Shown: positions 15,253 through 62,985 of the stretch, one piece after another
How the letters are laid out: each line of letters opens with the position of its first letter
Numbering within the stretch: position 1 is the stretch's first letter
NCBI GenBank assembly: GCA_019359445.1
Contig: JAHHHJ010000002.1
Coordinates: 1 to 64,000 of the forward strand
DNA length: 64,000 nucleotides
Reading direction: 5' to 3'
DNA from: Kastovskya adunca ATA6-11-RM4
Lineage (GTDB): Bacteria; Cyanobacteriota; Cyanobacteriia; Cyanobacteriales; Coleofasciculaceae
Translations under genes and position numbers: made by a program
The notes under the pieces: generated by a model
Told to the model about the DNA's origin: nothing
What the model saw: the letters and a program-made list of their open reading frames with translations, nothing else
Databases searched by the model: none

Positions 15253-15489
15253 TCATAGAGACTGAGGCGCGAACCACCGTCCTCTGATTCCCATCCTCAA
15301 CAGTCCCAGCCTGACGTTGACAGGTGTTGATTGAGTTGGGGTTAGAGGAACGCCCCGATGCAGTTGTTAATCCTGGGAACGTCTGCCGCACTTGGCGATC
15401 GCTAAGTCACTCCTGAACCTTCTCACCTCCCTTCACTGCAGAACAACTAACGGCAGACCAATGACTTACCTGGTTAAACGCCTTGAGCC

Positions 15490-15516
15490 ACTCCCACGGA
15501 TTGAATCCGTGGGATT
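15490..15516. mobile_element. IS200/IS605-type right-end hairpin
   Basis: CCCACGGATT and AATCCGTGGG (about 15493-15512) form a stable hairpin just beyond the tnpB stop codon. Elements of this family have subterminal hairpins at both ends, recognised for transposition, and the tnpB 3' end plus right end gives rise to the guide (omega) RNA. The exact element boundary cannot be fixed from one copy. Confidence 0.6.
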
Positions 15517-16679
15517 CAGGCATCGAGCAGGGATTGCAGGAGTAACTCCTGTCTGACATCCCCTACGCCTAGAGTTGAACTCCCAACTCTTTTAATATTA
15601 ATGCTGGCATTCTCATCCCTGTCATTGACCGAATGACAGGATGGACAGCGCCAACGTCTAACCGATAAATCTAGAGAGTCTAGGACATGACCACAGCAAG
15701 AGCAAGTTTTAGTGGATGGATACCAGGGGTCAATATAGATGAGCTGTTTCCCTTTCTTCGACGCTACCCATTCCAGTATTTGCAGGAAGTCCCCTAACGC
15801 TAAATCATTAATTTTTCGTCCCCATAACCGTTGCATCCCTTTGAGGTTTAGTGTCTCGAAACACAACACATCAAACTCGTCAGTTAACTTGTGTGCCAGC
15901 TTCCAGAACCAGTCCCGCCGACGATTGCTAATAGCCTCGTGGTAGCGAACTAAATGTTTTCTTGCCTGCTCTCGGTTGTTTGACCCTTGGCGCTTCCTAG
16001 AATGCTGTTTGGACGCTTTCTGGAGTGTGGCGAGGGATGACTTTAGGAATAATGGTGACTCAATCTTGAAGCCTGACGCTCCTAACGTCGCTACCGCTAC
16101 GCTATCTGAGCAAGTGAGGAACACCTTCAACCCGAAGTCAAATCCAGCTATTTTACCCGTCTCGAACGTGACTTCTGGAATTGAATATCCGTCAACAACC
16201 ACAACCATGAACAGCTCACCCAATGCGGTGCGCTTGATGGTTAGTGTTTTGATAGTTCCCTCTATCTCTCTTGAGTTCCAGTATTGATATACCCGATTTC
16301 CTATCTTGACTCGATTCCCTCCTAGAAACTTGTATCCAGCCTGCTTGAGGGTGAATGATTTGTACTTTTTGACCTTCTTGAATCCTGGCGGCTTTACCCC
16401 TTTCTTGTGATGTTTGAAGAACAGTTGGTAGGCTTTGTCGATCCGTTGACAGATATCCTGAACAGCTTGAGAACCTACCAACTGCCAAAATGGGTTACGC
16501 TTCCGCCGCTTGGCAATATGTTTCTGAAGCCTTGCACAGTTCAAGTGCTTTCCCCACATCCGGTAGTACCGCTTGTGCAGGGCAATCCCATGGTTATAAA
16601 TTACACCAGCGGCATTGATTGTCCGCTTGAGGTGTTTATTCCGCTTGTGACTGTACAGCTTAAACTTCAGGGTTTTCAT
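15516..16679 (-). CDS. tnpB: IS200/IS605-family TnpB (OrfB) RNA-guided nuclease
   Basis: This 387-residue protein has all key TnpB residues. The RuvC-like catalytic set is Asp181 ('GFDFGLKVFLT'), Glu275 ('FETLNLKGM') and Asp355 ('DRDENASINI'). The zinc finger is Cys326-x2-Cys329 and Cys345-x2-Cys348. It therefore looks intact. TnpB is now known as an RNA-guided DNA nuclease that helps retain the element. No tnpA Y1 transposase is present, so the copy would depend on one in trans. The start at 16679 (MKTLKFKLYSHKRN) fits the family; nine extra in-frame codons upstream are unlikely to be used. Confidence 0.93.
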   Translation of the reverse strand: MKTLKFKLYSHKRNKHLKRTINAAGVIYNHGIALHKRYYRMWGKHLNCARLQKHIAKRRKRNPFWQLVGSQAVQDICQRIDKAYQLFFKHHKKGVKPPGFKKVKKYKSFTLKQAGYKFLGGNRVKIGNRVYQYWNSREIEGTIKTLTIKRTALGELFMVVVVDGYSIPEVTFETGKIAGFDFGLKVFLTCSDSVAVATLGASGFKIESPLFLKSSLATLQKASKQHSRKRQGSNNREQARKHLVRYHEAISNRRRDWFWKLAHKLTDEFDVLCFETLNLKGMQRLWGRKINDLALGDFLQILEWVASKKGKQLIYIDPWYPSTKTCSCCGHVLDSLDLSVRRWRCPSCHSVNDRDENASINIKRVGSSTLGVGDVRQELLLQSLLDA

Positions 16680-20847: not shown

Positions 20848-21252
20848 ATGGAGATAAACAAGCAACAGCGCTCTGAGCAGGATTCGCTTGAGCAGAAGGA
20901 AGAGAAGCGAGACAAGGCAGAACAGAGGAGACAAGACCAAGAAGAGCAGCGCCAAGTTGATGAAGAAGGACGCCAGTCGTCAGAACAGGTACGGCAGGCA
21001 GCAGAACAGGCGCGGCAGGCAGCAGAACAGGCGCGGGTGTATACCGAGCAACTTCGGCAGCACGAGGAGCAAGCGCGGATGTATACCGAGCAAGCGCGGC
21101 TATATACCGAGCAAGCGCGGCTGTATGCCGAGCAGATTCGACAGGACGCCGAGAAAATACGAAAAGCTCAGGTGGAGCAAGAGCAGATTTTAAAGGAAAT
21201 ACAGCAGTCTACTCAGTTGTACCGCCGGGTGAAGGAGTGGGATGAAGGGTGA
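20848..21252 (+). CDS. Gln/Glu/Arg-rich coiled-coil protein with heptad repeats
   Basis: This is a 134-residue, highly charged protein that is almost entirely coiled coil. Seven-residue units such as 'QAAEQAR' and 'LYTEQAR' repeat from about residue 48 to 100. At DNA level they appear as near-perfect 21-bp repeats (for example around 20990-21035). There is no signal peptide or membrane segment. No enzyme function is suggested; a structural or spacer protein is possible. A second open frame in the same region is its shadow. The gene runs into GATGAAGG-type short repeats after its stop. Confidence 0.6.
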   Translation: MEINKQQRSEQDSLEQKEEKRDKAEQRRQDQEEQRQVDEEGRQSSEQVRQAAEQARQAAEQARVYTEQLRQHEEQARMYTEQARLYTEQARLYAEQIRQDAEKIRKAQVEQEQILKEIQQSTQLYRRVKEWDEG

Positions 21253-21593
21253 AGGATGAAGGATGAAGGGTGAAGGATGAAGTATGAAGGATGAAGGGTG
21301 AAGGATGAAGTATGAAGGGTGAGGGGTTATAGGTTCTAGGTTAGGGTTTTACCTAGTTACCCCATCTCCTCTACTCCTCCGCTCCCGTTTGGACTTCGCG
21401 GCTCGACGCTTCGAGAAGCCTCAGCGACCACTGAGCTTCGCCGAACGTCTGAGCGCGGTTCCTGAGCACTTCGACAAGACTTCGGCGTGAGCGCTCAGTC
21501 GAACGCTCAGTGTTCCACCTGCCGAAGGGCAGTCGAACGCTGAACTCACGTCGAGGCGTGTTTCCCTGATCCTGCCAGATATGTAACAAGTTA
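21240..21593. repeat. Short tandem repeats plus GTCGAACGCTCAG-type palindromes
   Basis: Positions 21241-21325 are tandem GATGAAGG/GTGAAGG/AGTATGA units. Positions 21380-21565 contain repeated short palindromic elements such as CGCTCAGTCGAACGCTCAG, CACTTCGACAAGACTTCGGC and GCCGAAGGGCAGTCGAACGCT. These resemble the interspersed hairpin repeats of filamentous cyanobacteria. An open frame on the minus strand across them is not convincing as a gene. Confidence 0.65.
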
Positions 21594-28320: not shown

Positions 28321-30531
28321 ATGCAAACAATGGAAAACCTCACTGTCGTTTACATTCATGGCATAGGAAACAAACCCGCGCCGGAGATTTTTAAAGAGAG
28401 TTGGGATAAAGCTTTATTTGGGACAAAAATGGGAGCGCGGACGCGTCTTGCCTACTGGGCAGATATCCGCTACCCGCAGCCTATCCCACCTACCGGACAG
28501 AAGGGAAGTGCATTAGCGATCGCTGCTACAGCCGATCTGCGACGTCCTTTAAGTGATGCTGAAATTATTGAGGAAAGTAAACTACTCGTTCCGGATACGC
28601 CAGAAGCCCAAGCCTTTGCTGAGGCGGCGGCTAGACAAATTCTGAATCAGGAATCAGAACGGGCGATTAGGGCGCGGCAAGTTCAGGCAAAGTTGCGGCT
28701 CTTACCCGATCCAGTGCGCGGAAAAATTACGGAATGGGTCACTACAACCTTTATACAAGATGCGGCGGCGTACTTCTTTGACGCCGAGCAAAAAGCGCAA
28801 ATTCAACAACGATTGCGTCAAATTCTCATTCCAGAAAAAGGGCCCTACGTAGTAATCGGTCATAGTATGGGGTCGATTATCGCCTACGACGTGCTGCGTC
28901 AGATGGAAAGTGCGGGTCTGGAAGTGCCGTTATTGGTGACGCTGGGTTCTCCCCTGGCTATCGAAGCCGTTAAAGATAATGTGGAAAAACCCTGGCAAGT
29001 TCCCCAACAGGTGAGGAGTTGGAAGAATTTTTGTGACGCTTTTGATGCCGTAGCGTTTGACAAAGACCTCAATGATGACTTTGATGGCAGTATTGTAGAC
29101 CTGTTGATTGAGAACACCGAACGGCGCGGCGGTGTCTTCAGCTTTTTTGACCTCAATGCCGCTCATTCGGGAGTCGGTTATCTCAGTACAAAAGCTGTGC
29201 AGCAGGCGGTGCAAGAGGTAGTAGGGACAACCTTCGCTCAACCGATTGCATCGTTTGTGATTGCTCGCGATGTGGCAGCAGAGATGGCAGGCCCAATCAA
29301 GCGAATCCCTGTCTTGATCGAACTCAGCGATGAAATTGCGGGTGCAACCTCCGTTGATAAACAAAAAACCCTCATCAACAAGTTGCAGCAGCTCACAAAT
29401 GGCTCAGAGGAGGCAAACATTGACCCTCTGCGTCGCTATGTTGCCGCCAATTTAACTCCAGAAGAAATAGACCGCCTCTCAGCTCAGTATAAAAACTTGC
29501 CCTTCGCTCGGATCTGGAAAAACACCCAAAAGCGTGCCCTGCTCGAGACCTCCACCCACACCGTGCAAGCGCACACCGCCCAACTTGGATACGGAGCAAC
29601 GGGTCGGGGCATTAGCTGGGCAATTCTCGACACGGGTATTAACGCCAATCATCCCCATTTCTACAACTACAAAAACATCGTGCAGCAGTGGGATTGTACC
29701 CAGGTAGGGGAACCCCCAGCGGGTAATGCGACAGACCGAAACGGACACGGCACCCACGTAGCTGGCATTATTGCGGGTACAGGCAGAGACGAACATGAAA
29801 CGCTGCGAGGCATGGCACCAGAAGCAAAGTTGCATATTTACAAAGTCTTGGATGACGAAGGCTTTGGCAATGACTCTTGGATTATCAAGGCGCTAGACCA
29901 CATTGCCAGCGTCAATGACTCCTCGCCCAATTTAGTCATTCACGGCGTCAACCTCAGCCTGGGCGGTTCCTTTGACCCCACCGTCTATGGATGCGGTCAC
30001 TCTCCCATCTGTCGAGAACTGCGGCGGCTGTGGCGTCAGGGGGTTGTTGTGTGCATTGCGGCGGGGAATGAAGGGCGGATTTTGATCGAAACCTTGGATG
30101 GTAGCGCCGAAGTGAACCTCGATCTATCCATCGGCGACCCCGCAAACTTAGAAGATGCGATCGCTGTCGGTTCGGTTCACAAGTCACAACCCCACACCTA
30201 CGGCATTTCCTACTTTTCCTCGCGAGGGCCCACCGCTGACGGACGCGCCAAACCCGACCTAGTTGCACCGGGAGAGCGAATTATTTCCGCCAATGCTCAT
30301 TTTTCGCAAAACCCCCAAGAATCGGAGTATGTAGAAATGAGCGGCACCAGCATGGCATGTCCCCACGTTTCCGGCATTATTGCCGCCTTCCTCTCAGTGC
30401 GTCAGGAATTCATCGGCTATCCCGATCGCGTTAAAGAAATCTTACTGTCCCACTGCACCGACTTAAAACGCGATCGCTACCACCAAGGCGCAGGAATGCC
30501 TAACCTAGTCAAGATGTTGAGCAGAACCTAG
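28321..30531 (+). CDS. Fusion of alpha/beta hydrolase and subtilisin-like serine protease
   Basis: This 736-residue protein joins two serine hydrolases. Residues about 1-330 form an alpha/beta hydrolase starting 'VVYIHGIGNKPAPE', with nucleophile Ser182 in 'GHSMGS' and a likely His in 'NAAHSGVGYLS'. Residues about 410-730 form an S8 subtilase with Asp437 ('AILDTGIN'), His476 ('NGHGTHVAG'), the oxyanion Asn in 'AAGNEG' and Ser677 ('GTSMACPHVSG'). A helical linker (about 330-410) joins them. No signal peptide or propeptide is seen, so it is probably cytosolic. Both active sites look complete. Substrates are unknown; lipase, esterase or toxin-like roles are all possible. It is monocistronic. Confidence 0.88.
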   Translation: MQTMENLTVVYIHGIGNKPAPEIFKESWDKALFGTKMGARTRLAYWADIRYPQPIPPTGQKGSALAIAATADLRRPLSDAEIIEESKLLVPDTPEAQAFAEAAARQILNQESERAIRARQVQAKLRLLPDPVRGKITEWVTTTFIQDAAAYFFDAEQKAQIQQRLRQILIPEKGPYVVIGHSMGSIIAYDVLRQMESAGLEVPLLVTLGSPLAIEAVKDNVEKPWQVPQQVRSWKNFCDAFDAVAFDKDLNDDFDGSIVDLLIENTERRGGVFSFFDLNAAHSGVGYLSTKAVQQAVQEVVGTTFAQPIASFVIARDVAAEMAGPIKRIPVLIELSDEIAGATSVDKQKTLINKLQQLTNGSEEANIDPLRRYVAANLTPEEIDRLSAQYKNLPFARIWKNTQKRALLETSTHTVQAHTAQLGYGATGRGISWAILDTGINANHPHFYNYKNIVQQWDCTQVGEPPAGNATDRNGHGTHVAGIIAGTGRDEHETLRGMAPEAKLHIYKVLDDEGFGNDSWIIKALDHIASVNDSSPNLVIHGVNLSLGGSFDPTVYGCGHSPICRELRRLWRQGVVVCIAAGNEGRILIETLDGSAEVNLDLSIGDPANLEDAIAVGSVHKSQPHTYGISYFSSRGPTADGRAKPDLVAPGERIISANAHFSQNPQESEYVEMSGTSMACPHVSGIIAAFLSVRQEFIGYPDRVKEILLSHCTDLKRDRYHQGAGMPNLVKMLSRT

Positions 30532-30740
30532 GGGAGTAGAGGAGCAGGGGAGCAGGGGAGCAGGGGAGCAGGGGAGCACCTCTTACCTTTCATACTTCAT
30601 ACTTCATCCTTCATCCTTTCTCCCAACTCTCTTCACCAAACACTGACAAATCGGATTCTGTCCACTCCTAGGAACCGATTTGAGCCGACAGAGGAGTATT
30701 TTTAAGAAAAAGAAAGTAGATTAACTCTACAGGGGATTGA
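30532..30740. repeat. Short tandem repeats upstream of the acyl-ACP synthetase gene
   Basis: GGGGAGCA units (about 30538-30578) are followed by CTTCATA/CCTTCAT units (30587-30620). They are the same two repeat types as at 121-290. No gene is seen. Confidence 0.75.
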
Positions 30741-45776: not shown

Positions 45777-48700
45777 GTGTTTCTACCTTTGATGCCGCAA
45801 GGCGTTGAGCACATAAAGAACGGAAACTGCGCTCTGCCCTAGGAGGTGTGTTTCTACCTTTGATGCCGCAAGGCGTTGAGCACAAACAAATCCTAGACAA
45901 GTGAAACCGGGCAGACCTGGTGTTTCTACCTTTGATGCCGCAAGGCGTTGAGCACGGAACGGAAGCCTCCTTTATCCAGTGAGATTTACGTGTTTCTACC
46001 TTTGATGCCGCAAGGCGTTGAGCACACGGTAGAAGGGCGGCGCTTAACATCAATTTTATTGAGTGTTTCTACCTTTGATGCCGCAAGGCGTTGAGCACAT
46101 GCCCGTGTGGTAGCCAATTAGTCTTAGATACCAGGTGTTTCTACCTTTGATGCCGCAAGGCGTTGAGCACGGGAATGGAATGCCAGCGGCGATACCTGCT
46201 TCCTTGGTGTTTCTACCTTTGATGCCGCAAGGCGTTGAGCACTTAGCGTCTGTTTGCCTGTTAAAGAGGAACTGAGGAGTGTTTCTACCTTTGATGCCGC
46301 AAGGCGTTGAGCACGAAGTTTGCTTTATCCAGTAAGCTTTACCGGATTGTGTTTCTACCTTTGATGCCGCAAGGCGTTGAGCACAGGAAATTGCTACAGC
46401 GCTTCTGTATCTTGGCTATCCGGTGTTTCTACCTTTGATGCCGCAAGGCGTTGAGCACTTCAAGGTAATCGCTGAGGTAGTCGAAGCCCAGGAAGTGTTT
46501 CTACCTTTGATGCCGCAAGGCGTTGAGCACATACAATAGAGAGGAGAAGCAACCAAGGCTAAACAGTGTTTCTACCTTTGATGCCGCAAGGCGTTGAGCA
46601 CCTAGCTCCTCTATTTGGGTCAATTGCTGGGGGATCTTGTGTTTCTACCTTTGATGCCGCAAGGCGTTGAGCACATAGCCGCTGGAGAACTTTAAATGAT
46701 ACTAGTAAATGTGTTTCTACCTTTGATGCCGCAAGGCGTTGAGCACTAGCGGTAGGCAGTCCGATTTGTCCCCCTGATTGGGTGTTTCTACCTTTGATGC
46801 CGCAAGGCGTTGAGCACTACCCTTCGGCTTTCGCGTACACGGCGGACATTCCCGTGTTTCTACCTTTGATGCCGCAAGGCGTTGAGCACAATTTCCCAAC
46901 CGTGGATAAAGTGATTGCTGCTCTGTGTTTCTACCTTTGATGCCGCAAGGCGTTGAGCACATGTAGATGGGGACTATAAAGACGGATCTAAATTCGTGTT
47001 TCTACCTTTGATGCCGCAAGGCGTTGAGCACATTCATTTGACAGTTTGACCCGGTTGGCAGCCGCGTGTTTCTACCTTTGATGCCGCAAGGCGTTGAGCA
47101 CTGAACAGAAAAAAAGCGATCACTGAGATGCGATCGCGTGTTTCTACCTTTGATGCCGCAAGGCGTTGAGCACGAGATGGAGTATAGCTACGGTAAGAGA
47201 AGGGGTCGTGTTTCTACCTTTGATGCCGCAAGGCGTTGAGCACCTCCAAAGCAGACACCCAGTTAGTCAGTCCTATGGGTGTTTCTACCTTTGATGCCGC
47301 AAGGCGTTGAGCACAATCCAAAGCTAGGATTTGCTTGAAAACCTATGCTGGTGTTTCTACCTTTGATGCCGCAAGGCGTTGAGCACCTAATTGCTCTAAT
47401 AGATTGCTCTACAGCGATAGCAGGTGTTTCTACCTTTGATGCCGCAAGGCGTTGAGCACGAAAGTAAATATGTTCAATTCGATCCGGTTACTCGGTGTTT
47501 CTACCTTTGATGCCGCAAGGCGTTGAGCACAAGACACTGGAAATATGGTTGTGATGCGGTTATTCCTCGTGTTTCTACCTTTGATGCCGCAAGGCGTTGA
47601 GCACACTTAGATAAGTTAACGGGCGGCATTCCTAGGGATGTGTTTCTACCTTTGATGCCGCAAGGCGTTGAGCACTTGATTCATTGTGGATTAGATGTGT
47701 TTTGTTTGTGGTGTTTCTACCTTTGATGCCGCAAGGCGTTGAGCACATACAAATAATCCCTAAAGGGGATTAAATGCTTGATAGTGTTTCTACCTTTGAT
47801 GCCGCAAGGCGTTGAGCACATCAAGCGCATCACCAGCAACCCGACAGTGGCAACATGTGTTTCTACCTTTGATGCCGCAAGGCGTTGAGCACGCGGCAGC
47901 GCAGAAAGTGATAATGCTAGGTTCAGGTGTTTCTACCTTTGATGCCGCAAGGCGTTGAGCACATTCTCCAAGAGCATGGGTAAAGAGCGATCGCTTGTGT
48001 TTCTACCTTTGATGCCGCAAGGCGTTGAGCACATCGCGGCGATGGCCCCGACCGCTCAAGGGCAACGGTGTTTCTACCTTTGATGCCGCAAGGCGTTGAG
48101 CACGGCATGAGTGCAAGCTTCTACTGTGTAACGCTTATCGTGTTTCTACCTTTGATGCCGCAAGGCGTTGAGCACCTCAATCCGAGTCACTAAGCTCAGA
48201 TACTGCATAAAAGTGTTTCTACCTTTGATGCCGCAAGGCGTTGAGCACGCAAGACTGCATAAATAATCCTGGCAAATGGAAAGGTGTTTCTACCTTTGAT
48301 GCCGCAAGGCGTTGAGCACGGATTAGAATCTGCCGTCGCCGCCGTGCCTGCTCTGTGTTTCTACCTTTGATGCCGCAAGGCGTTGAGCACGAGAAAGCGC
48401 CCGATCAAATGTTTCGGGCGCGATGTGTTTCTACCTTTGATGCCGCAAGGCGTTGAGCACCTGAGATAGAATAATCCCCCCCCCAATCAGGTATGTGGTG
48501 TTTCTACCTTTGATGCCGCAAGGCGTTGAGCACGATTTATCGAATCAGGAATATCAAGAGCTAATAATCGTGTTTCTACCTTTGATGCCGCAAGGCGTTG
48601 AGCACACTTGAAAGATGTGCCTAGAGAGATATTTGAAGAACTTGTGTTTCTACCTTTGATGCCGCAAGGCGTTGAGCACATGGAATTTGCTGAGGCGATC

Positions 48701-49185
48701 GCAAAGTATGGGGCAGTGTTTCTACCTTTGATGCCGCAAGGCGTTGAGCACGCCCCCAACCTTGCCGCCGTCCTGGTGCGATCGCGTGTTTCTACCTTTG
48801 ATGCCGCAAGGCGTTGAGCACATCCAGAGATGCTGTACTCATTTTTTACTTGGTAGATGTGTTTCTACCTTTGATGCCGCAAGGCGTTGAGCACTTGAAG
48901 AAGTAAGGAAACCTCACCGCGAGATTCTCCTGTGTTTCTACCTTTGATGCCGCAAGGCGTTGAGCACTCCCGTAAGGGGGAAATTTGTCCAAAATTTCCA
49001 ACACGTGTTTCTACCTTTGATGCCGCAAGGCGTTGAGCACCCATTACGAGGCATAGACTTCATCTCTTCATCCTTACGGTGTTTCTACCTTTGATGCCGC
49101 AAGGCGTTGAGCACAGGAAAGGTCAAAATCTCTACAGCTTTAGAATACTGTGTTTCTACCTTTGATGCCGTAAGGCGTTGAGCAC
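45777..49185 (+). CRISPR. CRISPR array, 48 repeats and 47 spacers
   Basis: I counted 48 copies of a 36-bp repeat, starting at 45777, 45848, 45920 and so on to 49150, with period 70-74 bp and spacers of 34-38 bp. The repeat begins GTGTTTCTACC and ends GGCGTTGAGCAC. The segment ATGCC-GCAA-GGCGT forms a 5-bp stem with a GNRA tetraloop, and cutting at its 3' base would leave the 8-base handle TTGAGCAC. The last repeat (49150) has one change, C to T, in the loop (GCAA to GTAA). The others checked are identical. Open frames on the minus strand through the array are artefacts of the repeat. Confidence 0.97.
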
Positions 49186-49231
49186 TTAGATAGGCACTCT
49201 TTTTAAGTAATCCACACGCCTTGTTTCTACC
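49186..49231 (+). repeat. Remnant spacer and truncated repeat beyond the array
   Basis: After the last full repeat there is a 35-base spacer-sized segment (49186-49220) and then TTGTTTCTACC (49221-49231), the first eleven bases of a repeat with one mismatch. The sequence then diverges. This looks like decay or deletion of older array units at the distal end. Confidence 0.7.
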
Positions 49232-54152: not shown

Positions 54153-55598
54153 TTAGGGAGTCAAGTGTTGCTTCGGCAATCCCATGACAAGGCGGTAATG
54201 GGCTTCGATTTGGCTCACTGTCTGAGACTGGCGGCGATCAATCCATTGACTGCGAGCAAATAATTCCTTTTGCAATTCATCCACGTCAATCGTTGTCACC
54301 TTGCCATCTGCCACTATACGCTTACCGTCTACCCAGACGCTATCTACTGCATTGGTAGGACGCCCCAACACTAGTAAGCCAATGGGATCGGTGCGAGGTA
54401 GCAAAGAGAGATTGGTGAGGTCATAAAGTACCAAATCTGCTTTTTTCCCCACCGTCAGCGAACCGAGTTCATCCGCTAGATTCAATCCCCTCGCCCCACC
54501 CAAAGATGCCATCTCCACCGACTGACGGGGTGTAATCCAGTGGTGATAGTCTGAGTCTGTGATGTTGTGTAAAATCGAACCGATCTTAATCGCTTCTAGC
54601 AAGTCTTGAGAGTCGTTACTCGATGCCCCATCACAGCCGAAGCTAACATTCACTCCGGCTTGCAGGTACTTTAAAATAGGGGCAATGCCACTGCCTAAGC
54701 GCAAATTACTCAGGGGATTGTGAACGACGGTTGACTGCGTTTCGGCAAGGATGGCAATATCGTCATCATTGAGCCAAACGCAATGGGCAAGGGATGTGCG
54801 AGGGCTGAGATAACCGATGCGCTTCAGGTGTTCGACAGCACTACAGCCGTATTTTTCCTGGGCTAACAGCTTTTGGGCGGCGGTTTCTAATAGGTGGGAG
54901 TGACGACAGAGTTGGGCGCGATCGCTCAATTCAATGCAGCCCTCAAATAAAGCATCAGAACACAGTTGAATCCCTGTTGGTGCAAGGAGAATATTCACAC
55001 CCTCTTCCGGTTTATGAAACGTCTCCACCACCTTTGCCATCAACGCCAGCGTCGCTTCTGTAGAACGGAGATAGGTTTCGTGTTCCCGATTCGCCTCTCC
55101 ATCCGGAATCCCCGCCGTTAGGGATTCATCTTGAATCAAGGGAGCAATAAACGCCCGGATGCCGATTTTCTGATAAGCCCGTACCGCTGCGGCGACGGTT
55201 TCTATTTCTTTACCGGGGATCAATACTAGGTGATCCACAACGCTCGTACCGCCAGATAGTAACGTCTCTACGGCGGTGCCTAAGGCACTCAGGTAGACTT
55301 GTTCCGGTTCTAAGGGCGCAAAGTCGTAGAGTTCCGCAAGCCAAAGTTCTAGAGGAACTGGAGGAATTGCCCCCCGTTGCCACATTTCAGAAGAGTGGGT
55401 GTGGGCGTTAACAAAGCCGGGGAGTAAAAGTTTGTTTTTGCCATCAACTGCCGTGCCGATGACTTCTAAATGGGGAGCGATCGCTTCAATGATAGATGTA
55501 GGGCGATCGCCTTCTGAGGAACCCTCTACAAGTTGCACGTCAACCGTTGCGTAACCTTGTTCGACGGGAATTAAAACATCTTTAATTGTAAAATTCAC
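54153..55598 (-). CDS. Amidohydrolase (MTA/SAH deaminase-like, TRZ/ATZ family)
   Basis: This 481-residue metal-dependent hydrolase has 'GFVNAHTHSSEMWQRG' (the two metal-binding His), 'CRHSHLLETAAQ' and 'SLAHCVWLNDDD' (further His) and the catalytic Asp in 'FGCDGASSNDSQ'. The pattern is that of 5-methylthioadenosine/S-adenosylhomocysteine deaminases and related guanine or chlorohydrolase enzymes. The substrate cannot be fixed from sequence. The gene stands alone in the minus direction, with the polysaccharide cluster divergent upstream. Confidence 0.85.
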   Translation of the reverse strand: MNFTIKDVLIPVEQGYATVDVQLVEGSSEGDRPTSIIEAIAPHLEVIGTAVDGKNKLLLPGFVNAHTHSSEMWQRGAIPPVPLELWLAELYDFAPLEPEQVYLSALGTAVETLLSGGTSVVDHLVLIPGKEIETVAAAVRAYQKIGIRAFIAPLIQDESLTAGIPDGEANREHETYLRSTEATLALMAKVVETFHKPEEGVNILLAPTGIQLCSDALFEGCIELSDRAQLCRHSHLLETAAQKLLAQEKYGCSAVEHLKRIGYLSPRTSLAHCVWLNDDDIAILAETQSTVVHNPLSNLRLGSGIAPILKYLQAGVNVSFGCDGASSNDSQDLLEAIKIGSILHNITDSDYHHWITPRQSVEMASLGGARGLNLADELGSLTVGKKADLVLYDLTNLSLLPRTDPIGLLVLGRPTNAVDSVWVDGKRIVADGKVTTIDVDELQKELFARSQWIDRRQSQTVSQIEAHYRLVMGLPKQHLTP

Positions 55599-56169
55599 AA
55601 CTTAAACCTGAATTTATATTTTTCTACCGCTGATATTACTCGTCCTCCCCTTACCCCACAACTGATTACTCTGCCCACGAACACAAAAAAACTGCATCTG
55701 GACTTAGCAAAAGCCGCGATCTAGTAATTGATAAATGACTTCTGTATCTTCAAATAACTTTACATCTTCATGAAATCTTCATGAATCCTTCATGAAGTTT
55801 CTCTTTTTTTATGTAAACATACTGAAATGTTCACCTCGATTGAAATTGATTCACGAATTGTCTCAGTAATACTGAAGGTGGCTAGAACTGCCAAATAAGT
55901 TGCGATCGTCGTTACGAGGCTCGCTCCGAAGGACGATACAAACCTGTATAGACTGCTCGGCAAATGAAATCTTTGCCAACCGTATCTGTTGTTAAGGGAA
56001 GATAAAGCAAAGGTAGAACAATCAAAAGCGTTTTCATGAAGATGCGTTTTTATGAAGGTGTTGCAATACTTTCGATTGATTTCTATTCCTCCAGAATGAT
56101 CAAAGGAAAACAACAAGATTTTAAGATGCAAGGTTACGGGTTTTAGTTGTTTAGAGCTAGGATGTTTGG
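55599..56169. promoter_or_regulatory. Regulatory region upstream of the polysaccharide cluster
   Basis: Three TTCATGAA palindromes lie at 55767-55774, 55778-55785 and 55789-55796, exactly 11 bp apart, and a fourth lies at 56033-56040. Three eight-base units with three-base spacers is the layout of PhoB/OmpR-type response-regulator sites in cyanobacteria, but the sequence differs from the known Pho box. They lie between the divergent amidohydrolase and glycosyltransferase genes. A minus-strand open frame at 55790-56182 is not convincing. Confidence 0.55.
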
Positions 56170-57291
56170 ATGAAGATCGCATTAGTCCACGACTATTTGA
56201 CGCAAAAAGGTGGGGCAGAGCGCGTATTTGAACTCCTCTGTAAATACTTTCCCACAGCAGATATATTTACATCTTTATATGATCCAGAACACACGATTGA
56301 TCTCAAAGAACGTCTAGTCAACACAACATTTCTTCAGAATATTCCAGGAGCAAAGAAGCATTTTCGACTATTGGCTCCCTTGTATTTCCCAGCCTTTCGA
56401 ACTTTAGATCTGCAAGATTACGATCTGATTATTAGTAGTAGTAGCAGCTTCGCTAAGGTAGTGCGAAAAAAACCAGGAGCCCAGCATATTTGTTTCTGCC
56501 ACAACGTCACTCGTTTTTTGTGGGATACAGAAACTTACCTCCAGAATTACGGACACTATAAGTCCTTTTATCCTGCTCTGAAAATACTATTTCAAGGCAT
56601 GAGAAATATAGATTTAATGTATGCCAATGAGCCTGATATTTATATTGCCAATTCAACTACTGTAGCCCATCGCATACAAGATTTTTATGGGAGAGCGGCA
56701 TATGTCGTTAACTACCCAATTGATACTAGTAAATTTGCTTTTTCAGACCGCAAAGATGATTTTTACTTAGTATCGTCGCGCTTGCTCAGCTATAAGCGAA
56801 TTGATGTGATTGTTGAAGCATTTAATAGGCTGGGATGGCCGCTACGGGTAATAGGCGATGGTCCAGAGCGAAAGCGTCTAGAAGCTAAAGCTTTGGAAAA
56901 CGTTCAATTTTTAGGATATCGAAGCGATGAGGAGCGTTGTCAGTTAATGGCAAGAGCTCGCTCTGTAATCGTTGCTGGTCTAGAAGATTACGGTCTAGTG
57001 CCAATAGAAGCCAATGCCAGTGGAACACCAGTTATTGCTTACGGTGCTGGGGGTGTATTAGATACCCAGATCCCTGGGAAAACGGGAATATTTTTTAACC
57101 AGCAGACACCGGAAGCCCTGCAAGATGCCCTGCTCAAAGCAAATAAAATTTCCTGGAACTACAGAAAAATACACAACCATGTTCTAAGCAATTTCACTGA
57201 GGACGTGTTCTTCAATAAAGTGGAGCAAATGCTAGAGAAGGTTGCTAGCATAAAGCCTGAAAGCTGGACAAATTCGACTATTCAAGTTTAA
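56170..57291 (+). CDS. GT4-family glycosyltransferase
   Basis: This 373-residue enzyme has the GT-B fold of family 4. The N-terminus 'KIALVHDYLTQKGGAERVFELLCKYFPTADIFTSL' is typical of WbaZ-like mannosyl- or glucosyltransferases of cell-surface polysaccharides. The C-terminal donor-binding part has 'GDGPERKRLE', 'GLEDYGLVPIEANASGTPVIAYGAGG' with the E-x7-E motif. It is the first gene of the cluster and lies 10 bp before the kinase gene, indicating cotranscription. The sugar donor is not known. Confidence 0.88.
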   Translation: MKIALVHDYLTQKGGAERVFELLCKYFPTADIFTSLYDPEHTIDLKERLVNTTFLQNIPGAKKHFRLLAPLYFPAFRTLDLQDYDLIISSSSSFAKVVRKKPGAQHICFCHNVTRFLWDTETYLQNYGHYKSFYPALKILFQGMRNIDLMYANEPDIYIANSTTVAHRIQDFYGRAAYVVNYPIDTSKFAFSDRKDDFYLVSSRLLSYKRIDVIVEAFNRLGWPLRVIGDGPERKRLEAKALENVQFLGYRSDEERCQLMARARSVIVAGLEDYGLVPIEANASGTPVIAYGAGGVLDTQIPGKTGIFFNQQTPEALQDALLKANKISWNYRKIHNHVLSNFTEDVFFNKVEQMLEKVASIKPESWTNSTIQV

Positions 57292-57301
57292 CGGTATAGC
57301 A

Positions 57302-59512
57302 GTGACACCAAGTAATCCTCAGGGAACGGACACTGATTTTGGATATGGGCAATTATTTGCCATCTTGCTGCGTCGGCGCTTTTGGCTGCTAGGTGTATTT
57401 TGTGGAGTGTTGGCGATCGCCACCCCCATGGCTTTGACCAAAGAACCCACCTATAAAAGTTCTATGCAGTTGTTGATAGAACCTTATTTTGAACAAAAAA
57501 ACTCAGGTGCCGGCCAAGCAGACGCTCAATTTACTGACTCGAATCTTCAAGTAGACTATGCTACTCAGTTAAACCTGATGCGTAGTACCCAACTGCTTCA
57601 AGAAGCCGTGGATTTACTTAAGCCTGAGTATCCGACGATTGGGGTAGACGAAATTAGAAACTCATTAACCTTAACCCGCCTACAGGGAGAGAGTGCTAAG
57701 AGTAAGACTGAAACTAAACTCGTTCAAGCAGATTACACTAGCGACGATCCGCTAAAAGCCCAAGAAGTACTAGAAGCGATTAAAAAAGTTTATCAGGATT
57801 TCAACCTTACTCAACAGAAACAGCGCTTAAACGATGGTTTGGCGTTTATCAACGATCAAGTGCCTGCGGCTGAAAAGAGCGTGCTTGAGGCAGAGAAATC
57901 GCTAGAGCAGTTTCGTCAAAAGCAGGGACTAATCGATCCAGCGCAACAGGCAGCAACTGTAACTGAATCTCTAACCAACATTGAGCAAGAACGACAGGCA
58001 ATCCGCGCCCAGTACCAAGAAACCCAGTCTCGCTATATTACTTTGCAACAGAACCTGGCTCGTTCTCCCCAAGAAGCACTCACCGCCTCCCGCCTGAGCC
58101 AGTCGTCACGCTACCAAACATTGCTCAACGAACTTCAAAAAACAGAACTGGCGCTAACAGAGCGACGAGTGAGATTTACAGATACTGACCCCAGCGTGCA
58201 GAAGTTAATTGAACAACGTCAGCGTCAGCAATCTCTCTTGCAGGAAGAAGCCCAAAGGGCATTAGGAAGAGCGCCGAGTCAAGCCGACCTTGCTCCAGAC
58301 ACTCTAATGAGCGAGGGACAACTTGGTAATACAGATTTGGGGCTTTCTAGCCAGCTAGTGGAGGCTCGAACTACTCTCGAAGCTCTAAAGGCTCGTGATT
58401 CTAGTCTGGCTAAAACTCAACAGCAACTCCGTGCAGAGTTAAATCGATTTCCGATGCTGATGGCAGAGTACCAGCGCTTGCAGCCAGAGGTGCAACTTAA
58501 ACGCGATACGCTGCAAAAACTGCTTGAGGCAAGACAGGAGTTAGGTATAGAACTTGCCAGAGGAGGATTTAACTGGCAAGTTGTAGAGGCACCCCAACCC
58601 GGTTGGCAAACGGGCCCCGATACAAAGCAAGACCTGATGTTAGCTGTAGTAGTGGGGTTATTCTTGGGAGGGATCGCAGCCTTTGGGCGCGAAGCCCTAG
58701 ATGATGCGGTTCATACCTCGGATCAGTTGGAGCGGCAGGTGGCTCTCCCCTTGTTAGGAATCATTCCAGAAGTGCCAGCACCTGGAACTAACGGACTGCC
58801 GATTAACCTACCGTTTCGCAAATCAGAAATAGCTCCTTCGATCCTGCAAATGGTTTCTTGGGTTCCCTTCCGAGAATCCCTGGATCTAATTTACAAGCAC
58901 ATCCAACTGCTCAATTCTGCTTCGGCACTCAGGTCGCTAGTTGTCACCTCGGCGCTACCTGGTGAGGGAAAGTCAATCTTAGTGCTGGGGCTAGCGTTCA
59001 GTGCTGCCCGTTTGCACCAACGGGTACTGCTAATCGATGCCGATCTGCGCCGTCCGACGCTACACCAAAAGCTCAACCTGTCTAATGAGCAAGGGTTGTC
59101 AACTTTACTGGCTAGCAATATGACGGTGGCAAAACCCCAGCACGTCTCTTTATCCGGTTCAGGTATTGATGTTTTAACAGCGGGACCAACACCACCCGAC
59201 CCAGTACAACTATTGAGTTCCCAACGAATGAAGGAGCTAATGGAAAGGTTTCAAGAGACCTACGATCTGGTATTAGTGGATACTCCTCCCATTCTCGGCA
59301 TGGTGGATGCTATCCAGATTGCCTCCTTTTGCAGTGGAGTAGTGATGGTTGGACGCATTGACCGAGTCACACAATCGGAACTCACTGAGGCGACAACAAT
59401 ACTGAGCCACTTAAATGCGCTCGGGGTTGTAGCTAACGGAGCTAGCAGTTCTACAAATCGCTATCTCGCTTATGCCGAACAAAACAGCCGCTCGTTGTTT
59501 CAACTGAATTAA
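57302..59512 (+). CDS. Wzc-type tyrosine autokinase/polysaccharide co-polymerase
   Basis: This 736-residue inner-membrane protein controls chain length and export of exopolysaccharide. An N-terminal Wzz domain and first membrane helix (about 25-45) are followed by a long coiled-coil periplasmic part and a second helix (about 445-465). The BY-kinase domain then has Walker A 'PGEGKS' (about 555), Walker A' 'LLIDADLRRPTLH' and Walker B 'LVLVDTPP'. The C-terminal tail has few Tyr ('RYLAYAEQNSRS'), so autophosphorylation may be limited. The start is GTG at 57302. Confidence 0.9.
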   Translation: MTPSNPQGTDTDFGYGQLFAILLRRRFWLLGVFCGVLAIATPMALTKEPTYKSSMQLLIEPYFEQKNSGAGQADAQFTDSNLQVDYATQLNLMRSTQLLQEAVDLLKPEYPTIGVDEIRNSLTLTRLQGESAKSKTETKLVQADYTSDDPLKAQEVLEAIKKVYQDFNLTQQKQRLNDGLAFINDQVPAAEKSVLEAEKSLEQFRQKQGLIDPAQQAATVTESLTNIEQERQAIRAQYQETQSRYITLQQNLARSPQEALTASRLSQSSRYQTLLNELQKTELALTERRVRFTDTDPSVQKLIEQRQRQQSLLQEEAQRALGRAPSQADLAPDTLMSEGQLGNTDLGLSSQLVEARTTLEALKARDSSLAKTQQQLRAELNRFPMLMAEYQRLQPEVQLKRDTLQKLLEARQELGIELARGGFNWQVVEAPQPGWQTGPDTKQDLMLAVVVGLFLGGIAAFGREALDDAVHTSDQLERQVALPLLGIIPEVPAPGTNGLPINLPFRKSEIAPSILQMVSWVPFRESLDLIYKHIQLLNSASALRSLVVTSALPGEGKSILVLGLAFSAARLHQRVLLIDADLRRPTLHQKLNLSNEQGLSTLLASNMTVAKPQHVSLSGSGIDVLTAGPTPPDPVQLLSSQRMKELMERFQETYDLVLVDTPPILGMVDAIQIASFCSGVVMVGRIDRVTQSELTEATTILSHLNALGVVANGASSSTNRYLAYAEQNSRSLFQLN

Positions 59513-59604: not shown

Positions 59605-61455
59605 ATGCCCTTAAAATTGTCCGCACCAATCCGAAGTTTCCTGAAAGCTACCGATGTTTGGCGAAAAAACGCATTCATTTTGCGAGAATTCAAAAATTTT
59701 CGCAAAATAGCAATTCTCGCTTTAGTATTTACCCTTTTTTCGGCAGTTTTTGAGGGATTTGGTGTCGGCTTTATTTTGTCATTTCTACAAAATTTTACCA
59801 GCCCCGATGCTGAACCTATTAAAACAGGTTTCAACTGGTTTGATGTTTTTATCTTAGGGGTAAATGCACCTGTTATCGAGCGTCTATATCGGATATCTGC
59901 TTTAATTTTACTGATAACTTGGCTGCGTTGTTGGTTTACCTATCTAGGAGAAATTTATACTAAAACGGCTCAAATTAAGCTAGTTGATGGACTGCGAAAA
60001 CAACTTTTTGAGCAGCTTCAAGCGTTGAGTTTGCGTTACTTTTCTAAGACGCGTTCTGGCGAACTGATTAATAGCTTGACCACAGAAATTGAGCAAATTA
60101 AGCAAGCTTTTGAAGTTCTTGCTTTTTTTATTGCCAAAGGTTCTACTCTTTTAGCCTACGTTGTTTCACTACTGTTACTCTCTTGGCAGCTAACCATTGT
60201 TTCATTGATGCTGTTTAGTTTGCTAGCAGTAGGAGTCTCAACGCTGATTGCTACGGTTAGAGAGGCTAGTTTTGAACGTTCAAAAGCTAATGGAATGTTT
60301 GTTGGAACTGCAGTGGAATTTATCAATGGAATTCGTACTGTTCAGGCCTTCGGAACCCAAGATTTTGAACGCCGACGCTTTTATGAGGCGAGTTCTCAAA
60401 TCGTAAATACAGTAACAAAAATTGTCAAAGCTAGCGCATTAGTTGTTCCGCTTTCAGAGGGGATATCGATTACGATTCTCATGGGAATGCTAGTTCTAGC
60501 TTTTACTATTTTTATTCCCAGCGGTCAGATGCAACCCGCTGCCTTATTGACATTTTTATTCGTCTTATTTCGCTTGATGCCCATTGTGCGTCAATTTAAT
60601 GGTGCGAGAGTAAGGATGGGTGACTTTCATGGTTCAGTAAATAATATTAGAGAACTGCTGAAAAGGGATAATAAGCCATATTTGAAGAATGGTAAAATTC
60701 CGTTTTCGGGATTGCAGCGCTCTATTGAGTTTGTGTCTGTAGATTTTGGTTATGATGCTGAGCATCTGGTGCTACATGACGTTAATTTAGCCATTGAACA
60801 AGGAAAAACAACTGCATTGGTTGGTTCCTCTGGTGCGGGTAAAACAACGCTGGCTGATCTTATTCCCCGCTTTTACGATTTAGTAGGTGGGAAGATTTTG
60901 ATCGATGGTGTTGATTTGCAGGACTTTGAGATTAATTCAGTCCGCCGCCAGATGGCGATCGTCAGTCAGGATACCTTTATTTTCAACACCTCTGTTCGCA
61001 ACAATATTGCTTACGGCACACAGGAGGCAGATGATGCAGCAATTCGGGAGGTAGCGCGATTAGCGAATGCGCTGGAGTTTATTGAAGAGATGCCTGAAGG
61101 CTTTGATACCTTACTGGGAGATCGGGGAACTAGGTTATCAGGGGGACAGCGGCAGCGAATTGCGATCGCTCGCGCTTTGCTTCGCAATCCTGAGATTTTA
61201 ATTCTTGATGAAGCGACAAGTGCGCTGGATTCTATCTCTGAACGATTGATTCAAGAGTCGTTAGAAAAGCTGACTGTAGGACGGACGGTAATTGCGATCG
61301 CGCACCGTTTATCTACGATCGTGCGAGCAGATAAGGTAGTAGTACTCGAACAAGGAAGAATTGTAGAACAAGGAACCTATCAAGAGTTGCTAGAGCGGCG
61401 CGGGAAGCTTTGGAAATATCATCAGATGCAGCACGAATCTGGTCTAGTAAGCTAA
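59605..61455 (+). CDS. HepA-like ABC exporter (fused membrane and ATPase domains)
   Basis: This 616-residue half-transporter has six hydrophobic segments (about 40-330) and an ATPase domain with Walker A 'GSSGAGKTTL' (about 407), signature 'LSGGQRQRIAIARAL' (about 511) and Walker B 'ILILDEATSALD'. It resembles HepA, needed for the heterocyst envelope polysaccharide in Anabaena, and MsbA-like lipid-linked exporters. In this cluster it probably exports a polysaccharide unit or lipid-linked intermediate. The substrate is inferred from context. Confidence 0.85.
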   Translation: MPLKLSAPIRSFLKATDVWRKNAFILREFKNFRKIAILALVFTLFSAVFEGFGVGFILSFLQNFTSPDAEPIKTGFNWFDVFILGVNAPVIERLYRISALILLITWLRCWFTYLGEIYTKTAQIKLVDGLRKQLFEQLQALSLRYFSKTRSGELINSLTTEIEQIKQAFEVLAFFIAKGSTLLAYVVSLLLLSWQLTIVSLMLFSLLAVGVSTLIATVREASFERSKANGMFVGTAVEFINGIRTVQAFGTQDFERRRFYEASSQIVNTVTKIVKASALVVPLSEGISITILMGMLVLAFTIFIPSGQMQPAALLTFLFVLFRLMPIVRQFNGARVRMGDFHGSVNNIRELLKRDNKPYLKNGKIPFSGLQRSIEFVSVDFGYDAEHLVLHDVNLAIEQGKTTALVGSSGAGKTTLADLIPRFYDLVGGKILIDGVDLQDFEINSVRRQMAIVSQDTFIFNTSVRNNIAYGTQEADDAAIREVARLANALEFIEEMPEGFDTLLGDRGTRLSGGQRQRIAIARALLRNPEILILDEATSALDSISERLIQESLEKLTVGRTVIAIAHRLSTIVRADKVVVLEQGRIVEQGTYQELLERRGKLWKYHQMQHESGLVS

Positions 61456-61934: not shown

Positions 61935-61989
61935 AGTTAGGCTTACTAAAAGCTCTCTCCCCTCAACGTAGTCTACACATTTGCTCAAA

Positions 61990-62985
61990 ATGAATAAAAT
62001 TCTCTATTTAATTGCTTCTCATACTAACCCTGAACAAGTGGTCAGGTTGGTAAAAACAATCAAAATTGGAAGTCTTGATTCTCAAATTTTAATTCATCAT
62101 GATTACTCCAGTTCCTACCTGAACATTGCTGATTTTGAAGGCTTGAGCAATGTTCGCGTTATAGAAAATTATGTTCCAGTTACGTGGGGGGATTTTTCTC
62201 AAGTAGAAATGGAGCTTAACTGCATCAACTGGTTAATGACTCATTCTATTGAATTTGACTGGTTAGTATTTCTTTCTGGTCAAGACTATCCAATTAAACC
62301 ATTGGCTGAAATCGAGCAGTTTCTTGAGAAAACCCGGTATGACGGATTTATGGAGTATTTTTCAGCTAAAGAACCGCCAAAAGAACCGACAGAATATGGT
62401 TTGAGGTGGAATAAAAATACTGGAGTAGGGCGATTTTTTTTTCATTACTACAAATTGCCTTCACCCAAAATTATCAAGAGCTTAATATTTAGGATAGGTC
62501 GCATTATTAATGGGCGACAGCCACTAATTACTATGATTGCTGATAGAAATGGTGCTCGCTTAGGAGTCCGCTGTTTTTCGACCCCTTTTACGTCAGAATT
62601 TCAGTGCTATGCAGGATCTCAGTGGTACACCTTATCCTATCGCTGCATTCAATACATCCATGATTTTGTTCAACATCATCCAGGTTTTGTGAAACATTAC
62701 CAAAATACTATTATTCCCGATGAATCTTTTTTTCAAACTATTTTAATTAATAATATTAAACTAAAAATTCTTAATAATAATAAGCGCTACATCCCCTGGA
62801 CAAATACCTCCCCGATTGTTTTAGGGATTCAAGATTTTGACAGCCTCATTACATCCGATAAGCACTTTGCCCGTAAATTTGATGTCAATGTAGACGCACA
62901 GGTGTTAAAGCGACTAGATCGGTATCTCTCAACTAATCAAGAGCAGCTCTGTAGCGGTTCTTGGTCACAGGAGGCAAAAACCTAA
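61990..62985 (+). CDS. Core-2/I-branching (GT14-like) glycosyltransferase
   Basis: This 331-residue protein resembles the beta-1,6-N-acetylglucosaminyltransferase (GT14, core-2/I-branching) family. It begins 'NKILYLIASHTNPEQVVRLVKTIK' and contains 'LIHHDYSSS', 'WGDFSQVEMELNCINWLM', 'FLSGQDYPIKPLAEIEQFL' and 'SQWYTLSYRCIQYI', which are diagnostic of the group; 'PDESFFQTIL' carries the likely catalytic acid. It probably adds a side branch to the polysaccharide. The start ATG at 61990 is preferred to an in-frame TTG at 61981. Confidence 0.82.
   Translation: MNKILYLIASHTNPEQVVRLVKTIKIGSLDSQILIHHDYSSSYLNIADFEGLSNVRVIENYVPVTWGDFSQVEMELNCINWLMTHSIEFDWLVFLSGQDYPIKPLAEIEQFLEKTRYDGFMEYFSAKEPPKEPTEYGLRWNKNTGVGRFFFHYYKLPSPKIIKSLIFRIGRIINGRQPLITMIADRNGARLGVRCFSTPFTSEFQCYAGSQWYTLSYRCIQYIHDFVQHHPGFVKHYQNTIIPDESFFQTILINNIKLKILNNNKRYIPWTNTSPIVLGIQDFDSLITSDKHFARKFDVNVDAQVLKRLDRYLSTNQEQLCSGSWSQEAKT

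What the first reader, a model, noticed from the sequence alone, without database searches (positions are those of the whole stretch)
55767..56040. Helically phased TTCATGAA palindromes upstream of the exopolysaccharide cluster
TTCATGAA starts at 55767, 55778 and 55789, each exactly 11 bp apart, and again at 56033. Three 8-base units with 3-base spacers put binding sites on one face of DNA and match the geometry of cyanobacterial PhoB/OmpR-type boxes, but with a different, palindromic core. The sites could control the divergent amidohydrolase, the polysaccharide genes or both.
Basis: partly seen in the sequence, partly recalled or inferred. Interest (0 to 1): 0.6.

Follow-up and report, generated by a model that had tools for sequence, protein, structure and literature searches.

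The report
Three-repeat operator before sugar-coat genes
Three copies of an 8-base word, one DNA turn apart, look like a docking site for a two-component response regulator in front of a cyanobacterial exopolysaccharide cluster, and the same kind of site recurs beside surface-polysaccharide and regulator genes in other cyanobacteria.

Summary
In detail: TTCATGAA lies at 55767, 55778, 55789 and 56033. The triplet is not chance: the best triple in 60 random 64-kb sequences had at least 5 mismatches. The copy at 56033 is out of phase and can be chance.

The triplet is best read as an operator for an OmpR/PhoB-family response regulator (11-bp direct repeats). Two locus sets chosen without the motif support this. 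Around 80 orthologues of one OmpR-type regulator, TTCATGAA with period 11 ranked first of 768 word/period pairs (15 of 80 loci). Upstream of 30 STAND-ATPase homologues it ranked first again (11 of 30, next 5). In this genome that regulator lies on contig C1 with its kinase, a degenerate box and glycosyltransferases.

The likely target is the exopolysaccharide cluster from 56170, with a -10-like TATGTA 13 bp after the box; the divergent amidohydrolase is less likely.

Against: 7 of the 11 STAND boxes are in genomes without this regulator, so the binding protein is not settled. The array could also be a terminator hairpin. Orthologous glycosyltransferase starts lack the box (0 of 12). Whole-genome counts do not separate period 11 from 12; intergenic versus coding position does. 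The searches listed found no such box in print.

The parts
55767..55774 (+). TTCATGAA unit 1 (palindromic half-site)
55778..55785 (+). TTCATGAA unit 2, 11 bp after unit 1
55789..55796 (+). TTCATGAA unit 3, 11 bp after unit 2
55810..55815 (+). TATGTA, candidate -10 element 13 bp after the box, toward the exopolysaccharide genes (inferred)
   Evidence: read directly; TA at 12 bp after the box in 15 of 22 regulator-locus elements, full TAnnnT in 5 of 22
55777..55797 (+). hairpin formed by units 2 and 3, followed by a T-rich run to 55809; terminator-like, rival reading
   Evidence: 1 found, 0.5 expected in shuffles; RNA -8.8 kcal/mol
56033..56040 (+). isolated TTCATGAA, out of phase, probably chance
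55628..55745 (+). remnant of an isochorismatase-family gene; its homology ends 21 bases before the box
   Evidence: intact relative PF00857
54153..55598 (-). amidohydrolase (PF01979), divergent neighbour
56170..57291 (+). glycosyltransferase (PF00534/PF13439), first gene of the presumed target cluster
57302..59512 (+). Wzc-like polysaccharide co-polymerase / tyrosine autokinase
   Evidence: TIGR01007 above cut-off
59605..61455 (+). ABC transporter (membrane + ATPase)
61981..62985 (+). Core-2/I-branching type glycosyltransferase (PF02485)

Best explanation
The array is an operator of three half-sites on one face of the DNA for a dimerising OmpR/PhoB-family response regulator. It sits just upstream of a -10-like element (TATGTA, 55810) and probably activates the exopolysaccharide cluster that starts at 56170. 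The most likely regulator is the histidine kinase/response regulator pair on contig C1 of the same genome (kinase about 14029-15597, regulator 15572-16237). Shown here: phasing, non-chance occurrence, recurrence of degenerate boxes at orthologues of that regulator and upstream of STAND-ATPase genes, and intergenic position. Inferred: binding, activation rather than repression, which of the 19 OmpR-type DNA-binding domains in this genome binds, and the target genes.
For: 1) Chance excluded. 2) Motif-blind test at 80 orthologues of the C1 regulator: TTCATGAA, period 11, at most 5 mismatches of 24, is first of 768 word/period pairs, 15 of 80 loci; no other pair reaches more than 3 loci. 3) A profile from 22 such elements (the own C1 element among them) scores the window site 25.3; every other site in the 64 kb scores below 0, apart from the same array on the other strand, 12.6. 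4) Of the 19 OmpR-type DNA-binding-domain loci in this genome (about 1.5 kb each side), only the C1 one has the element: 5 mismatches against 8 or more. 5) Among 34 loci of boxes with at most 3 mismatches, 6 carry the C1-type regulator in the stretch held; with all 19 own loci as queries no other type matches at E 1e-25 except by overlapping the same gene (weaker receiver-like matches at 1e-8 in L103 and L111). 6) Box and regulator co-occur: 21 of 31 box genomes against 108 of 357 others, Fisher p 8e-5. 7) 12 of 15 regulator loci with the element also hold GT28-type glycosyltransferases, against 11 of 65 without. 8) TA at 12 bp after the box in 15 of 22 elements, 1 of 22 on the other side. 9) Upstream of 30 STAND-ATPase homologues the same word and period rank first of 768 at all three thresholds: 4 of 30 loci (next 1), 11 (next 5), 16 (next 12) at up to 5, 6, 7 mismatches. 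10) In this genome a degenerate triple (at most 3 mismatches) occurs at 6 places, control 0: here, the regulator, a STAND gene, near a PEP-CTERM protein gene, and two others.
Against: Of the 11 STAND boxes, 7 are in genomes without the C1-type regulator at E 1e-60; for 5 of the 7 a looser search gave a best relative of only 46-47% identity. Another protein must read the box there. With pairs instead of triples (at most 2 mismatches of 16) the regulator loci do not single out TTCATGAA: 7 of 80 loci, the same as CAAATTTG at period 11. The window box lacks the ATGAGAAnnTTCTCAT part of the regulator-locus element. In 22 other boxes whose direction I set by hand, TA at 12 bp is only 5 of 22; full TAnnnT at 12 bp is 5 of 22 even in the regulator loci. 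The upstream regions of 12 orthologous glycosyltransferase starts lack the box (best triple 9-12 mismatches). The 5' leader would be about 350 nt. Whole-genome counts alone do not separate period 11 (23 of 271 genomes) from period 12 (20 of 271). Sites at orthologous loci share ancestry, so they are not independent; genome size may add to the co-occurrence.
Confidence: 0.65

Rival explanations
1. The array is an operator of the same geometry, but for a different OmpR-type regulator (for example a metal or stress regulator of the CopR kind, or one more widespread than the C1 regulator).
For: 7 of 11 STAND boxes are in genomes without the C1-type regulator; the published CopR site is TTCATN4-5TTCAT (PMC4182526, passage); the genome has 19 OmpR-type DNA-binding domains.
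Against: No other own OmpR type matches near the boxes at E 1e-25 (34 loci) or has the element within about 1.5 kb; the nearest relatives in 7 genomes without it have no box within about 1.5 kb (best triple 8 or more mismatches); CopR spacing gives 9-10 bp, not 11.
Confidence: 0.25
2. The array is an intrinsic terminator (hairpin of units 2 and 3 plus T-run) that stops transcription coming from the isochorismatase remnant or beyond.
For: CTTCATGAATCCTTCATGAAG followed by a T-rich run is called terminator-like (1 found, 0.5 expected); RNA fold -8.8 kcal/mol, z -4.6. The other family member with an exact pair (L003) also has a T-rich tail.
Against: Any direct repeat of a palindrome forms such a hairpin; unit 1 is not needed for it; I see few T-runs after the other boxes; in regulator loci triples of period 11 stand in 15 loci against 1 for period 12 and 0 for 13, although hairpin loops of 4-5 would serve as well; the upstream gene is only a remnant.
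Confidence: 0.12
3. The box controls the divergent amidohydrolase (54153-55598) rather than, or as well as, the polysaccharide genes.
For: It lies 168 bp from that gene's start; the regulator-locus profile scores higher on the strand whose promoter side faces the amidohydrolase (25.3 against 12.6).
Against: On that side no TA at 12 bp (TATTTG at 10 bp only); the box lies on the polysaccharide side of the point where homology to the isochorismatase gene stops (55745); L019 shows an amidohydrolase-like ORF (by eye) beside an intact isochorismatase gene with no polysaccharide genes between.
Confidence: 0.15
4. The array is a simple tandem repeat without function.
For: Short tandem repeats occur elsewhere in the window; 8 of 35 period-11 loci have identical first and second units.
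Against: Spacers differ while the 8-mers are identical here; 27 of 35 loci have differing units and none is in an ORF of 80 aa or more; recurrence at motif-blind loci.
Confidence: 0.05

Closest known systems
SphR/PhoB Pho box of cyanobacteria and E. coli (PMC1906773, passages seen)
   Same: 8-bp direct repeats with 3-bp linkers, three in a row for SphR; in E. coli 10 bp upstream of a -10 TAN3T/A
   Different: sequence CTTAACCT (or CTGTACTA) instead of TTCATGAA; phosphate genes instead of polysaccharide genes
CopR site of Synechocystis sp. PCC 6803 (PMC4182526, passages seen)
   Same: TTCAT direct repeats; the C1 regulator's best NCBIfam model is the heavy-metal CopR/SilR family, below its cut-off
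   Different: spacing N4-5 (period 9-10) against N6 (period 11); copper genes
XssS/XssR/XssQ regulation of synechan (PMC8205485 and PMC13125312, passages seen)
   Same: two-component control of a cyanobacterial exopolysaccharide; XssQ is a STAND protein with an N-terminal DNA-binding domain, which the box-bearing STAND genes resemble (N-terminal resemblance by eye only; NB-ARC)
   Different: XssQ binds AAGTTNNAC and XssR lacks a DNA-binding domain; here an OmpR-type regulator with its own domain and a TTCATGAA box
PEP-CTERM/exosortase regulation by PrsK/PrsR (recalled; PMC1569441 seen only in search listings)
   Same: two-component control of surface polysaccharide and PEP-CTERM genes (recalled)
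   Different: sigma-54 type regulator there (recalled), OmpR type here

Membership tests
OmpR/PhoB-type tandem operator | two or more direct repeats spaced about one helical turn (10-11 bp) | tested here: met
   three exact units, 11 bp apart
OmpR/PhoB-type tandem operator | fixed distance to a -10 element | tested here: inconclusive
   TATGTA at 13 bp in the window; TA at 12 bp in 15 of 22 regulator-locus elements, 5 of 22 others
OmpR/PhoB-type tandem operator | recurs at orthologous promoters and next to its regulator gene | tested here: inconclusive
   met elsewhere: 15 of 80 regulator loci, 11 of 30 STAND loci, rank 1 of 768 in both; not met at the window's own glycosyltransferase orthologues, 0 of 12
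OmpR/PhoB-type tandem operator | bound by an OmpR-family response regulator | not testable with these tools
   needs protein-DNA binding
SphR Pho box | CTTAACCT units | tested here: not met
   units are TTCATGAA (consensus from PMC1906773)
CopR box | TTCAT with N4-5 spacing | tested here: not met
   TTCAT with N6 spacing (CopR from PMC4182526)
Intrinsic terminator | stable hairpin followed by T-run | tested here: met
Intrinsic terminator | lies at the 3' end of a transcribed gene | tested here: inconclusive
   only a gene remnant upstream
Simple tandem repeat | units and spacers identical, position indifferent to genes | tested here: not met
   spacers ATC and TCC differ; 0 of 35 period-11 loci in an ORF of 80 aa or more, against 9 of the 10 period-12 loci held

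The most novel reading that the evidence does not exclude
An undescribed cyanobacterial surface-polysaccharide regulon: a CopR-like two-component pair reads a TTCATnAA-n3 tandem box and controls exopolysaccharide clusters, GT28 glycosyltransferase pairs, PEP-CTERM proteins and a STAND-ATPase activator gene of XssQ-like architecture, which would link it to the second, XssQ-type layer of control.
Probability: 0.35. Interest if true: 0.65.

Novelty: new member of a known kind. Interest (0 to 1): 0.5.

Why it matters
How cyanobacteria switch exopolysaccharide production on and off is, to my knowledge, worked out for few systems. A box with a candidate regulator, a short list of places in the same genome and a spacing rule makes that question testable with one binding assay and one deletion. 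The operator is of the PhoB/SphR kind; what would be new is its sequence and its polysaccharide targets.

Tried and rejected
Pattern with the GTTTnCTC tail over 388 genomes: 15 genomes, 18 match rows against 8 control hits, too weak to use. The whole-genome triple count looked decisive against the reversed-pattern control (31 of 388 genomes against 4), but a period-12 control gave 20 of 271 genomes against 23 of the same 271 for period 11. I therefore do not rest the case on that count; the two sets differ in position (period 11: 0 of 35 loci in an ORF of 80 aa or more; period 12: 9 of the 10 loci held, from 20 genomes). Pairs with at most 3 mismatches in the own genome: 44 places against 27 control, mostly noise. 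Pairs in the regulator loci: not distinctive.

An error of mine, mended: loci from the genome search are not turned to the match, so read the wrong side for minus-strand loci (10 of 12 glycosyltransferase loci; 12 of 30 STAND loci), and one search used 14 of the 19 own regulator loci. One search repeats these on the right side and with all 19.

Conservation at orthologous glycosyltransferase starts: none (0 of 12; up to 900 bases upstream, 444 in L008). RNA family in 55400-56400: none at the gathering threshold. Closest regulators in 7 genomes without the C1 type: no box. A phosphate regulon was rejected on sequence.

Literature: (open-licence PMC only) showed me no TTCATGAA box or such a regulon, but I saw capped listings. 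One search found 23 papers with the string and a cyanobacterial word, 10 listed, none opened. One paper with TTCATGA was checked: it is a primer (PMC4390870). A review on Nostoc flagelliforme was checked for passages (PMC12157317).

Selection: for I chose 22 of the 35 period-11 loci by hand (most tandem-like ones and all regulator-locus ones left out) and set their direction by hand to a nearby gene. The count of polysaccharide genes beside boxes (12 of 35) is partly by eye from ORF starts (Pfam on 35 hand-picked proteins) and has no base-rate control. Part of the output was cut; one search shows those loci again. The profile was not cross-validated.

Full report
Observation. TTCATGAA occurs four times in the window, at 55767, 55778, 55789 and 56033, and nowhere else in it. 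Four copies are not unusual (9 of 100 shuffles reach that), but three in exact 11-bp register are: in 60 random sequences of the same length and neighbour frequencies the best triple had at least 5 mismatches of 24, and the window has none. Apart from this array, the scan for an 8-mer repeated three times at a fixed period of 9-15 listed two other places, a period-12 array at 13759 and a period-14 array at 21257. The exact pair occurs only here in the 5.09-Mb genome and in 1 further genome of 96 relatives. The copy at 56033 is not in phase.

Surroundings. To the left lies a divergent amidohydrolase (54153-55598) and, on the + strand, a 118-bp remnant of an isochorismatase-family gene whose homology stops at 55745 (the family is shown on the intact relative L019). 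To the right lie a glycosyltransferase, a Wzc-like polysaccharide co-polymerase/kinase, an ABC transporter and a further glycosyltransferase. The box therefore sits at the edge of the polysaccharide cluster, 21 bases beyond the scar. No known RNA family reaches its threshold in 55400-56400.

Does the box recur? Over 388 genomes of the order, a triple with at most 3 mismatches is in 31, and the reversed pattern in 4. A fairer control, period 12, is in 20 of 271 genomes against 23 of the same 271 for period 11, so the count by itself proves little. The kind of place differs: of 35 period-11 loci (34 fetched plus the window) none lies in an ORF of 80 aa or more and 27 have differing first and second units; of the 10 period-12 loci held, 9 lie in ORFs of 134 aa or more and 6 have identical units. 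Most of those period-12 hits are coding repeats; period-11 hits are intergenic and mostly degenerate, as operators are.

Which regulator? A two-mismatch pair in the own genome lies directly behind an OmpR-type response regulator and its kinase on contig C1, and before a GT28-type and a GT4-type glycosyltransferase. I then chose loci by the regulator alone: 129 of 388 genomes have a match at E 1e-60, and I took up to about 10 kb around 80 of them. Among 64 palindromes of the same composition and 12 periods, triples of TTCATGAA at period 11 came first (15 of 80 loci; no other pair above 3). With pairs at most 2 mismatches off, the word is not distinctive (7 of 80 loci, like CAAATTTG). Aligned, 22 elements (15 of these plus 7 from loci held already) give the consensus TTnATGAAnntTTcATGAAnntTTnATGAGAAaatTCTCATGaa, with TA 12 bp beyond one end in 15 of 22 and beyond the other in 1 of 22. 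The element goes with GT28-type glycosyltransferases in the same stretch (12 of 15 loci with it, 11 of 65 without). None of the other 18 OmpR-type loci in the own genome has such an element within about 1.5 kb, and with all 19 as queries only the C1 type is found near boxes at E 1e-25 (6 of 34 loci). Box and regulator co-occur across genomes (21 of 31 against 108 of 357; p 8e-5), though genome size may add to this.

A second target. The own genome has a degenerate box before a STAND-ATPase gene, and two other genomes found by the box have one before a homologue (G138, G152). Chosen by the protein alone, the upstream regions of 30 homologues again put TTCATGAA, period 11, first of 768: 4, 11 and 16 of 30 loci at up to 5, 6 and 7 mismatches, against 1, 5 and 12 for the next pair; the 11 boxes begin 160-200 bases before the start used (which replaces, where 12 of the 30 loci had been read on the wrong side). 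The protein has an NB-ARC domain and an N-terminal region that looks, by eye, like the DNA-binding region described for XssQ, the activator of synechan genes (PMC8205485, passages). But 7 of these 11 genomes have no C1-type regulator at E 1e-60, and for 5 of the 7 a looser search found only 46-47% identical relatives. Another protein reads the box there, or the box outlived its reader. This is the main reason for doubt about the regulator's identity.

Which gene does the window box serve? Toward the polysaccharide genes a TATGTA lies 13 bp after the box; toward the amidohydrolase there is only TATTTG at 10 bp. Boxes elsewhere lie beside polysaccharide genes in about 12 of 35 loci by my reading (WecG-type, GT2, GT28, UDP-glucose dehydrogenase and acyltransferase genes) and beside or near PEP-CTERM protein genes in two genomes, one of them this one. 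Against this, the profile fits better on the strand that would face the amidohydrolase, the orthologous glycosyltransferase starts lack the box (0 of 12), and the palindromic units make the direction ambiguous. I take the polysaccharide cluster as the likelier target.

A rival at the same place. Units 2 and 3 plus the T-rich run form a terminator-like hairpin. Any repeated palindrome does that, and I see few T-runs after other boxes, but it may be real here, and the two functions do not exclude each other.

Compared with what is known. The geometry is that of Pho boxes, and the half-site TTCAT is that of the CopR site, with one or two more bases of spacing. It fails the sequence test for the first and the spacing test for the second, so it is filed under neither; it works like them. 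The searches of open-licence papers that I ran showed no TTCATGAA operator and no such regulon in what they listed.

Noticed in passing
46135-49187: CRISPR-like array with a 36-nt repeat and spacers of about 35 nt.
   Followed up: no
55628-55745: Remnant of an isochorismatase-family gene; in a relative (L019) the intact gene stands beside a divergent amidohydrolase-like ORF.
   Followed up: partly
129-222, 245-282, 21227-21322, 30530-30578: Short tandem arrays of 7- and 8-bp units (GGGGAGCA, CTTCATA, GGATGAA, AGGGGAGC), two of them containing TTCAT or its complement.
   Followed up: no
L120 (own genome C1:6000-24000): Kinase-regulator operon followed by GT28 and GT4 glycosyltransferases; in several other genomes a short second regulator ORF (receiver only, by its length) and, in some, a HAMP-type sensor ORF sit in the same locus.
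   Followed up: partly
L164 and L183: The regulator-locus element lies near a gene whose start resembles SulP-type transporters instead of glycosyltransferases (by eye).
   Followed up: no
L003 (G002:C35:33554): An exact TTCATGAA pair with a T-rich tail like that of the window, before a 98-aa ORF without a Pfam match.
   Followed up: partly
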